Program-made: the position numbers and the translations under genes
Part shown: positions 4,506-6,344 of the stretch, one piece after another
Layout of the letters: every line of letters starts with the position of its first letter
How positions within the stretch are numbered: the stretch's first letter is position 1
Notes under the pieces: generated by a model
Told to the model about the DNA's origin: nothing
Database searches by the model: none
What the model saw: the letters and a program-made list of their open reading frames with translations, nothing else
Origin: an uncultured Thermoproteales archaeon
GTDB taxonomy: Archaea; Thermoproteota; Thermoprotei; Thermoproteales; Thermoproteaceae
Assembly: GCA_938027595.1 (NCBI GenBank)
Contig: CALJAK010000001.1
Location: 1 to 64,000 of the forward strand
Length of the DNA: 64,000 bases
Direction: 5' to 3'

Positions 4506-5447
4506 TCACACTGTGGAGTCTAAATATTTTCTCACCTCCAGAGCAATTAGATGAGCCAACGGTGGGGGGACGCTTTCTCCCACTTGGTTATATTGAGAAT
4601 CTCTAGAGCCTAGGAAGTGATAACTGTCTGGATAACCCATCAACCTGGCTTGTTCTCTCACTGTCAAAACTCTGTGCTCCTCTGGATGTACAAATCGCCT
4701 AGAGCCCATCACAGTGGGTGCGACGTCGTCCCAAATGAGTCTAATGAAATTGCCGTAGGAGCCCTCGGCCCCCCTGAATTTAGACAAACTCTCGCCGGGC
4801 TTTAGCTTGGCGATTTTTTCCAACTTCCGCACGCTCAGCGTGACTGTTTCGTGGTTGGGCAAATCGCCGCCGTCTGGGGGCGGCATGTTAGAGAGAGCTT
4901 CTCTCACGGTAGTCGTTTTACGCCTCGGCGGTTTTAGCTTGATGTTTGAGATAAACACACGCCGCCTCCTGCTGGGAACTCCGTAATCCTCCGCGTGGAG
5001 GACGTTGAAGTAACTTACGTACCCAGCTAGTCTAAACTCTCTCTCGACGTATTGCCTCAAGGGCTCCTCCGCCAGCGGAGCCACGTTCTCCAGTATGAAC
5101 ACCTTAGGCTTCAGCGCTTTCACAAGTCTCACAAACTCCAACGTCAACTGGCCGTTGGGGTCTAGGTACAGTCTATCCACTGGGTCTTCTAACCTATTCG
5201 GGTTAGCTGCAGTGAAGGGTTCGCATGGGGGGCTGCCTATGACTACGTCTGGCTCGCCAAATCTCGACAAGTCTCTATGATCCACATTCCGAATATCCTC
5301 TTGAATTACCACAGTGTTGTGATTAGCGCTGTAAGTCCGCGCTGCGTCTCTGTCTAACTCCACGGCGGCGATTATTCTAAAACCAGCCATCCTAAACCCA
5401 AGCCCGAACCCACCGCCGCCGGCGAATAAATCAAACACGTTATACAC
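4506..5447 (-). CDS. DNA (cytosine-5) methyltransferase
   Basis: Transfers methyl from S-adenosylmethionine to C5 of cytosine in DNA. About 313 residues, short for the family. Motif I FDLFAGGGGFGLGF at residues 5-18; motif IV SPPCEPFT near 72-79 with the catalytic cysteine (usual PCQ is PCE here); motif VI ENV at 120-122; motif VIII RRRRVF near 160; motif IX RVLTVREQARLMGYPD near 260; motif X QVGESVPPPLA near 288. The target-recognition region between VIII and IX is only about 90 residues, so a short recognition site is likely. Start is GTG at 5447 with a shared A/T-rich promoter. It is divergent from a PD-(D/E)XK protein, suggesting a type II restriction-modification pair. Confidence 0.92.
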   Translation of the reverse strand: MYNVFDLFAGGGGFGLGFRMAGFRIIAAVELDRDAARTYSANHNTVVIQEDIRNVDHRDLSRFGEPDVVIGSPPCEPFTAANPNRLEDPVDRLYLDPNGQLTLEFVRLVKALKPKVFILENVAPLAEEPLRQYVEREFRLAGYVSYFNVLHAEDYGVPSRRRRVFISNIKLKPPRRKTTTVREALSNMPPPDGGDLPNHETVTLSVRKLEKIAKLKPGESLSKFRGAEGSYGNFIRLIWDDVAPTVMGSRRFVHPEEHRVLTVREQARLMGYPDSYHFLGSRDSQYNQVGESVPPPLAHLIALEVRKYLDSTV

Positions 5448-5491
5448 AAATCACTAAGGAAATTATTTAAATGCTATATTTAAGACTCTCC
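5448..5491. promoter_or_regulatory. Overlapping divergent promoters of the methyltransferase and the PD-(D/E)XK gene
   Basis: A 44-bp A/T-rich spacer. AATTATTTAAATG (about 5461-5473) can serve as TATA element for both genes: it lies about 26 bp from the GTG at 5447 on the minus strand and about 26 bp from the ATG at 5492 on the plus strand. Expression of the two genes would therefore compete for the same DNA. Confidence 0.6.
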
Positions 5492-6073
5492 ATGGGGTTT
5501 CGTAAGTTGAAAGTGCGACTTAGCGATTTGATGAAGTTAGAGAAACCAGATAAATTGAGTTCTAGATATGGAAAGGCATTTGAAAAAGCCGTCTTGACGT
5601 TAATAAAGGCGAAAGACACAGTGACGGCATTTCGGACGTTTATAGAAAACTACGGCGAGCCACACACCGGTGCCTTCAGCAAATTGTTTAAACTACTCCC
5701 GTGGGCTAAGAGAGTTGTAGAAATAGAGCCGGCGCCGCCCGTCGCCCTCCAGTTGAGTGACGTGACTATAAGCGCGCAGGCGGATTTCGTAGTCAAGTAC
5801 TCAGACGGTAGGAAAGAACTCATTGAGTTAAAGTCACACATAATAAAAAATGGGGAGTGGAAAACCAAAGCCGAGTGGTCACTGGCCACTAAAGTCATGC
5901 GAATGCTCTACCGGAAAGCTGGTTACAACTACCCACTCCGGTTGATATACTTCACAGAAAAGGGGGGGAAGGTAACTCCAGAGGAAGAAGTCTTCATGTA
6001 CCCCAAAGACGAGAGAGATGACGAGGTAGTTTTGGCAGTTCTACAAGACAGAATTAGGAAGATAGACAAGTAA
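5492..6073 (+). CDS. PD-(D/E)XK superfamily nuclease, candidate restriction endonuclease
   Basis: About 193 residues. Not recognised as a named enzyme, but the segment QADFVVKYSDGRKELIELKSH (Asp near residue 98, Glu-Leu-Lys at 112-114) is the catalytic core of a PD-(D/E)XK nuclease: the Asp and Glu bind the metal and the Lys activates water. The following helix is rich in Lys/Trp. An ATG at 5471 is in frame, but the promoter spacing favours 5492. It is transcribed divergently from the C5-methyltransferase; this head-to-head layout and size fit a type II restriction enzyme. A Holliday-junction or repair nuclease is possible but less likely in this context. Confidence 0.7.
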   Translation: MGFRKLKVRLSDLMKLEKPDKLSSRYGKAFEKAVLTLIKAKDTVTAFRTFIENYGEPHTGAFSKLFKLLPWAKRVVEIEPAPPVALQLSDVTISAQADFVVKYSDGRKELIELKSHIIKNGEWKTKAEWSLATKVMRMLYRKAGYNYPLRLIYFTEKGGKVTPEEEVFMYPKDERDDEVVLAVLQDRIRKIDK

Positions 6074-6344
6074 ATTTCTCCAACGCCGCTTTGTGGATCT
6101 GTTTAACTATAGACGTGGCTAAGTCTAATTTATCTACATGTCTAGACTGAATTATGGCATTATCGTCCCCCACCATGTACTCCACTGAACACTCGCCGCC
6201 GTGCCAAGAGAATACTAGAAAGACGTAGAAATCTTCTTCTATTTCTATCTGGACTAGAGCTTCTTGTCGCCTCCACTCCACACTAAGGCTAATCCCCAAC
6301 TCGCTCTCGAGATTTTTAAAGAATTGCTCCAACTCACGCCTCAC
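6054..6344 (-). CDS. Unknown small acidic protein
   Basis: About 96 residues (MRRELEQFFKNLESELGISL...). Not recognised. It has an N-terminal helix, a central beta-rich part (VQIEIEEDFYVFLVFSW) and a C-terminal helix, so it looks like a compact alpha/beta domain. The ATG lies about 26 bp from the A/T-rich promoter shared with pheT. Its 3' end overlaps that of the PD-(D/E)XK gene by 20 bp in convergent orientation. Confidence 0.65.
   Translation of the reverse strand: MRRELEQFFKNLESELGISLSVEWRRQEALVQIEIEEDFYVFLVFSWHGGECSVEYMVGDDNAIIQSRHVDKLDLATSIVKQIHKAALEKFTCLSS

What the first reader, a model, noticed from the sequence alone, without database searches (positions are those of the whole stretch)
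4506..6073. Candidate type II restriction-modification pair with an unnamed nuclease
A complete C5-cytosine methyltransferase is head-to-head with a 193-residue protein carrying a clear PD-(D/E)XK core (Asp near 98, ELK at 112-114). The two share a 44-bp promoter. This is the classic layout of a type II system, and the nuclease resembles none I can name. A cytosine methylase in an organism growing near the boiling point is itself odd, since 5-methylcytosine deaminates to thymine quickly; a T/G-mismatch glycosylase (one is known in Pyrobaculum) would be needed.
Basis: partly seen in the sequence, partly recalled or inferred. Interest (0 to 1): 0.75.

Follow-up and report, generated by a model that had tools for sequence, protein, structure and literature searches.

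The report
Fixed methylase-nuclease pair in hyperthermophilic archaea
A DNA methylase that nearly all Crenarchaeota carry without a partner is, in every Pyrobaculum and Thermoproteus genome examined, coupled head-to-head to a small RecB/Cas4-type nuclease, and most of these genomes shun the DNA word GC(A/T)GC as if the pair were a permanently kept restriction system; the window's own genome does not show that shunning.

Summary
In detail: a C5-methyltransferase (4506-5447, minus) and a 193-residue PD-(D/E)XK protein (5492-6073, plus; D98, E112-x-K114) diverge from a 44-bp gap. This is not an ordinary mobile R-M system. The methylase is the order-wide, vertically inherited MTase (43/45 Thermoproteales) that matches the published persistent 'orphan' HG2 family, two members of which methylate CCWGG. 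The nuclease occurs in 17/17 Pyrobaculum and Thermoproteus genomes and in no other genome of a 398-genome phylum sample, always head-to-head with this MTase. Its modelled fold is RecB/Cas4/MGME1-like. No family model matches it above its cut-off. GCWGC is the most depleted 5-bp palindrome in all 11 other well-sampled nuclease-bearing genomes (O/E 0.15-0.63) but near 1 in nuclease-lacking relatives (0.83-1.02). The depletion is synonymous in all three codon phases, so it looks like selection rather than 5mC decay. In five of these genomes no other candidate C-methylase was found. I therefore favour a fixed R-M pair whose specificity shifted from CCWGG to GCWGC. Against it: the window's own genome (O/E 0.89) and one basal relative lack avoidance, and specificity is inferred, not shown. 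A Vsr-like repair role is disfavoured.

The parts
4506..5447 (-). C5-cytosine DNA methyltransferase, 313 aa, HG2-like core MTase of Thermoproteales; clade-specific TRD residues P218, W240, E257 (numbering of the trimmed alignment row)
   Evidence: PF00145 E 5e-58; only PF00145 protein of the genome; 43/45 genomes of the order; clade with the other nuclease-linked MTases 99/96; TRD columns
5448..5491 (.). 44-bp divergent intergenic region with a palindromic TTTAAA box at 5466-5471, about 21-24 nt from both start codons
   Evidence: sequence; an AT-rich TATTTAAATA-like box is conserved in most Pyrobaculum orthologous gaps; promoter function is inferred
5492..6073 (+). 193-aa PD-(D/E)XK nuclease, RecB/Cas4/MGME1-like fold, no cysteines; presumed catalytic residues D98, E112, K114
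   Evidence: alignment of orthologues; AlphaFold2 model pLDDT 87.9; Foldseek/VIA matches Z about 11 to MGME1, ACE1, AdnA, Cas4; weak PDDEXK_1 matches in 8 of 13 orthologues

Best explanation
The two genes form a restriction-modification-like pair that became a permanent part of the genome in the common ancestor of Pyrobaculum and Thermoproteus. Shown: the MTase is the vertically inherited core enzyme of the order; the nuclease was found only in this clade and is always beside it; the genomes of the clade (not the window's own) strongly avoid GCWGC by synonymous choice in all reading phases. Inferred: after the nuclease was gained, the MTase's target changed from the family's CCWGG to GCWGC (same inner CWG), it now protects host GCWGC by 5-methylation of the inner cytosine, and the RecB/Cas4-type nuclease destroys DNA whose GCWGC sites are unmethylated. 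The shared divergent promoter region would keep the two activities balanced. In the window's genome the genes look intact, but restriction pressure appears weak or recently relaxed.
For: Nuclease in 17/17 genomes of two genera and 0/381 others of the phylum sample, with no viral relative found. Head-to-head in all, one with a 992-bp insert, even where flanking genes differ. MTases of nuclease-bearing genomes form one clade, 99/96, and 7 columns split cleanly from nuclease-lacking MTases, three of them in the TRD. GCWGC is the most depleted NNWNN/NNSNN palindrome in all 11 other well-sampled nuclease+ genomes, O/E 0.15-0.63, against 0.83-1.02 in 5 nuclease- relatives, and stands out from all palindromic motifs scanned. 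Avoidance is synonymous in all codon phases, including W-to-S changes that deamination cannot make. G028, G030, G036, G041 and G042 have no other PF00145 and no PF01555 MTase, yet O/E is 0.19-0.63. HG2 alone does not produce CCWGG avoidance in nuclease- relatives.
Against: The window's own genome has the intact pair but no specific avoidance (GCWGC 0.89, GCSGC 0.87); basal G034 is 0.85 in 12.6 kb. The two HG2 members tested in PMC10609329 methylate CCWGG. All avoiding genomes are one clade, so the association is effectively one evolutionary event. The fold family is mostly exonucleases and repair or adaptation nucleases, not classic type II REases. An unrecognised third system could drive the avoidance. 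Viral support is weak: Pyrobaculum/Thermoproteus globuloviruses avoid GCWGC (17 vs 66 expected) but Sulfolobales viruses used as controls avoid it even more.
Confidence: 0.5

Rival explanations
1. The MTase is an ordinary HG2 orphan methylating CCWGG; the nuclease is a RecB/Cas4-type repair or processing enzyme that became co-regulated with it, and the GCWGC avoidance is caused by an unrelated, unrecognised restriction system of the clade.
For: HG2 members characterised so far target CCWGG (PMC10609329). The fold is RecB/Cas4-like. The window's genome and G034 carry the pair without avoidance, as expected if a third gene is responsible. Sulfolobales viruses suggest that GCNGC avoidance can arise without this nuclease.
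Against: In five avoiding genomes no other PF00145 or PF01555 MTase was found. The endonuclease of the sporadic second C5 R-M locus is in only 4 of the genomes. Strict 17/17 linkage argues that the pair acts together.
Confidence: 0.3
2. A Vsr-like guard: the nuclease nicks T/G mismatches left when the MTase's 5-methylcytosine deaminates, making methylation tolerable near boiling.
For: Nuclease tightly linked to an MTase of a Dcm-specificity family; no close MIG-type T/G glycosylase in the window's genome; no Vsr family member anywhere in the order, so the post would be vacant.
Against: Fold matches are RecB/Cas4-like. Vsr-type repair should preserve or enrich the methylated word, but GCWGC is depleted and CCWGG/CTWGG are unremarkable. 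Nuclease-lacking relatives keep the same MTase family without it.
Confidence: 0.1
3. The word is lost by mutation: the MTase methylates GCWGC and hot deamination erodes the sites; the nuclease is incidental.
For: High deamination rate of 5mC at high temperature is established knowledge, noted in PMC10609329.
Against: The deamination product GTWGC is not specially enriched (0.89-1.11), while GCWGT and TCWGC rise more. Ala-Ala junctions drop GCW in favour of GCS, and G1 of the site is replaced by C, T and A, neither a deamination route.
Confidence: 0.05

Closest known systems
HG2 persistent m5C MTase of Crenarchaeota (M.SuaII, M.Asp7I; PMC10609329)
   Same: C5-MTase found nearly throughout Crenarchaeota; our MTase is the only PF00145 protein of its genome and its orthologues are order-wide and vertical
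   Different: HG2 is described as orphan and CCWGG-specific; here it always has a nuclease partner and clade-specific TRD residues, and the avoided word is GCWGC
ApeKI / M.ApeKI of Aeropyrum pernix (GCWGC, m5C; PMC8557920)
   Same: m5C R-M with GCWGC target in a hyperthermophilic crenarchaeon (the target here is inferred)
   Different: M.ApeKI is 56 kDa versus 313 aa here; the nuclease profile found no relative outside Pyrobaculum/Thermoproteus in the phylum sample
Dcm-Vsr of Escherichia coli
   Same: CCWGG-family C5-MTase with an adjacent small nuclease
   Different: No Vsr family match; different fold; the word statistics go the wrong way for Vsr repair
RecB/Cas4/MGME1/lambda-exonuclease (PDDEXK_1) nucleases
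   Same: Predicted fold and D...ExK core (Z about 11, Foldseek E about 1e-6)
   Different: No helicase domain, no Fe-S cysteines, not encoded with cas genes; only about 9-17% identity in the structural alignments; no defined substrate
SuaI R-M of Sulfolobus acidocaldarius (HG15, GGCC, m4C)
   Same: A persistent R-M pair in Crenarchaeota, the only persistent complete type II system listed in PMC10609329
   Different: Species-level persistence and m4C; ours spans two genera and derives from the m5C core MTase

Membership tests
Type II restriction-modification system | DNA MTase with complete catalytic motifs | tested here: met
   PF00145 full length, TIGR00675 above cut-off
Type II restriction-modification system | Linked nuclease with an intact active site | tested here: met
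   17/17 head-to-head; D98, E112, K114 invariant
Type II restriction-modification system | Nuclease and MTase share one recognition site | tested here: inconclusive
   GCWGC avoidance fits for the clade but not for the window's genome; site not measured
Type II restriction-modification system | Site-specific cleavage blocked by methylation | not testable with these tools
   needs purified protein
HG2 persistent MTase | Orthology to the crenarchaeal core m5C MTase | tested here: met
   sole PF00145 of the genome; 43/45 in the order and 173/398 in the phylum at E<=1e-30; not aligned directly to M.SuaII
HG2 persistent MTase | CCWGG specificity | not testable with these tools
   CCWGG is not generally avoided; clade-specific TRD residues
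HG2 persistent MTase | Orphan, without a nuclease partner | tested here: not met
   nuclease always adjacent in this clade; inspected nuclease-lacking relatives have other neighbours
Vsr endonuclease | Vsr family signature | tested here: not met
   no PF03852 match in the order with controls ringing; none for the protein
Cas4 | Fe-S cluster cysteines and Cas4 family match | tested here: not met
   no Cys in the window protein; no Cas4 family match in Pfam
PDDEXK_1 / RecB-like nuclease clan | Fold and catalytic core | tested here: met
   weak PF12705 matches in 8/13 orthologues
ApeKI-type GCWGC R-M | Homology to ApeKI endonuclease | tested here: inconclusive
   ApeKI sequence not held; no nuclease relative in the phylum sample

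The most novel reading that the evidence does not exclude
A RecB/Cas4-fold nuclease was recruited to the ancient orphan 5mC methylase of Crenarchaeota, the methylase switched from CCWGG to GCWGC, and the two made a restriction-modification system that has been inherited vertically across two genera. It would be a rare case of an orphan methylase becoming a fixed restriction system, with real 5mC in organisms growing near 100 C.
Probability: 0.42. Interest if true: 0.8.

Novelty: new variant of a known kind. Interest (0 to 1): 0.6.

Why it matters
The published survey calls the persistent m5C methylase of Crenarchaeota an orphan and its presence in hyperthermophiles a conundrum, proposing that it may be silenced. 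Here is a whole clade in which it has a dedicated nuclease partner and in which most genomes carry a strong word-avoidance signal, implying that methylation and restriction are active. It gives a concrete, cheap test (GCWGC against CCWGG in Pyrobaculum or Thermoproteus DNA), and a possible origin route for restriction systems: an orphan methylase acquiring a RecB-type nuclease. A thermostable GCWGC enzyme would be a second one beside ApeKI.

Tried and rejected
Family scans of the nuclease (Pfam, NCBIfam, PADLOC, PHROGs) and PDB sequence searches gave nothing above cut-off. No relatives in phages or viral contigs; weak Listeria phage hits at E 0.02-0.1 treated as chance. No classic type II REase or Vsr appeared among the top fold matches; this absence excludes nothing. 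The third gene, ORF96 (6054-6344), sits beside the nuclease in Pyrobaculum but is order-wide and unlinked elsewhere, so it is not part of the system. Viral word avoidance as proof: weakened when Sulfolobales control viruses avoided GCNGC too; lambda gave 0.86. The sporadic second R-M locus (about 460-aa C5-MTase, about 350-aa putative REase, MIG-like glycosylase) as the cause of GCWGC avoidance: its endonuclease is present in only 4 genomes. Faster decay of the pair in the window's genome as the reason for missing avoidance: its divergence is in line with other genes, so that point stays unexplained.

Full report
Observation. The window holds a complete C5-cytosine DNA methyltransferase at 4506-5447 (minus strand, 313 aa) and, diverging from it across 44 bp, a 193-residue protein at 5492-6073 with D98, E112 and K114. 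Thirteen orthologues agree on the start at 5492 and on those residues. The MTase is full-length PF00145 and is the only such protein in its 1.24-Mb genome. The gap contains a palindromic TTTAAA box at 5466-5471, roughly centred between the two start codons; a similar box is conserved in most Pyrobaculum orthologous gaps. Its use as a bidirectional promoter is inference.

Distribution. The MTase is a core gene: 43 of 45 genomes of the order carry it at about 55-75% identity, and the two misses are incomplete genomes. In the phylum sample 173 of 398 genomes have it at E <= 1e-30. This matches group HG2 of the archaeal survey PMC10609329, found in 99 of 100 Crenarchaeota, described there as an orphan m5C MTase, with M.SuaII and M.Asp7I shown to methylate CCWGG. 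I did not have M.SuaII to align directly. The nuclease is different: it is in 17 of 17 genomes of the window's genus and the next (Pyrobaculum and Thermoproteus; six of the seven records named belong to these genera and one is an unclassified Thermoproteaceae archaeon) and in none of the other 381 genomes sampled, with no phage or viral relative found. It is head-to-head with the MTase in all 17, one with a 992-bp insertion, although the flanking genes differ between genera. In the relatives without the nuclease that I inspected, the MTase lies next to other genes. MTases of nuclease-bearing genomes form one clade with support 99/96. The picture is a single gain of the nuclease next to an ancient core MTase, then vertical retention.

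Nuclease fold. No family model scores above its cut-off. An AlphaFold2 model from eight natural sequences has mean pLDDT 87.9. Its best structural matches are human MGME1, Argonaute-associated ACE1, AdnA/AddAB/RecB nuclease domains, Cas4, Exo5 and RecE, at Z about 10-11 and Foldseek E about 1e-6; the viral library returns the same class. Eight of 13 orthologues match PDDEXK_1 weakly, best E 2e-4. The window protein has no cysteine, so it is not an Fe-S Cas4. A shared fold does not show function.

Word statistics. If a restriction pair is active, its site is often avoided. Using a maximal-order Markov expectation on 100-200 kb per genome, CCWGG is not avoided in most genomes (0.78-1.22). GCWGC is the most depleted NNWNN/NNSNN palindrome in all 11 well-sampled nuclease-bearing genomes other than the window's: O/E 0.15, 0.18, 0.19, 0.26, 0.28, 0.28, 0.30, 0.31, 0.42, 0.48 and 0.63. 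The five nuclease-lacking relatives give 0.83-1.02, including the same-family genus g3 at 0.99. Among all palindromic words scanned, GCWGC separates the two groups by far the most. The avoidance is synonymous in every codon phase. For example in G029, alanine codons before another GC-starting codon use GCA/GCT 3% of the time against 32% elsewhere. Such W-to-S changes, and replacement of the first G by C, T or A, are not 5mC deamination; the expected product GTWGC is not specially enriched. This points to selection against the site.

Linking the word to this pair. GCWGC shares its inner CWG with CCWGG, so a change in the outer base pair would suffice. Seven alignment columns split nuclease-linked from nuclease-lacking MTases without overlap; three (P218, W240, E257) lie in the target-recognition domain. 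In G028, G030, G036, G041 and G042 I found no other PF00145 and no PF01555 methyltransferase, so this MTase is the only candidate found to protect GCWGC. A second C5-MTase locus, with a putative 343-aa endonuclease and a MIG-like glycosylase nearby, is sporadic and its nuclease is in only four genomes.

What does not fit. The window's own genome has the intact pair but no specific GCWGC avoidance (0.89, with GCSGC at 0.87), and basal G034 also lacks strong avoidance (0.85, little sequence). The pair in the window's genome is not diverging faster than other genes. Either restriction pressure is relaxed there, or another gene drives the avoidance. Globuloviruses of Pyrobaculum and Thermoproteus avoid GCWGC (17 observed, 66 expected; GCSGC 374 vs 370), but Sulfolobales viruses taken as controls avoid GCWGC even more, and GCSGC as well, so the viral evidence is not discriminating. 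All nuclease-bearing genomes are one clade, so the correlation counts as about one event.

Repair reading. A Vsr-like role was attractive because HG2 shares Dcm's site. But no Vsr family member was found in the order, the top fold matches are of another class, and Vsr repair should preserve the methylated word rather than deplete it.

Verdict. I put 0.5 on a fixed R-M-like pair with GCWGC specificity, 0.3 on an unrelated cause of the avoidance with the nuclease doing something else, 0.1 on Vsr-like repair and 0.05 on mutational loss. Species names for genomes other than those named would rest on memory of genome lengths and are not used as evidence.

Noticed in passing
L197, L217, L218, L201 (Pyrobaculum relatives; e.g. 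L218:449-2862): A sporadic second C5-MTase (about 445-477 aa), in most of these loci beside a convergent about 340-360-aa protein (putative REase, no family match) and near a MIG/MutY-like glycosylase: probably the system to which the Pyrobaculum T/G glycosylase belongs.
   Followed up: partly
L220:1138-3064: A different C5-MTase with an N-terminal extension, directly followed by another MutY/MIG-like glycosylase gene (genome G032, same length as P. oguniense TE7 CP003316).
   Followed up: no
window:6054-6344: 96-aa ORF convergent with the nuclease, conserved beside it in Pyrobaculum genomes but present across much of the order elsewhere in the chromosome; no family match.
   Followed up: yes
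window genome G000 (200 kb sample, L074-L083): GGCC (O/E 0.40), CGCG (0.57) and GATC (0.58) are strongly avoided, GATC mainly in this genome; a PF01555 MTase match lies at G000:C17:27862-28035.
   Followed up: no
L246, L247, L248 (SIRV1, AFV2, ATV): Sulfolobales viruses almost lack GCWGC (2 observed vs 76 expected) and are low in GCSGC (14 vs 50), which suggests an unrecognised pressure on this word in their hosts.
   Followed up: no
L016 / G040:C1:1619436-1620427: The only nuclease-bearing genome with a long (992-bp) insertion between MTase and nuclease.
   Followed up: no
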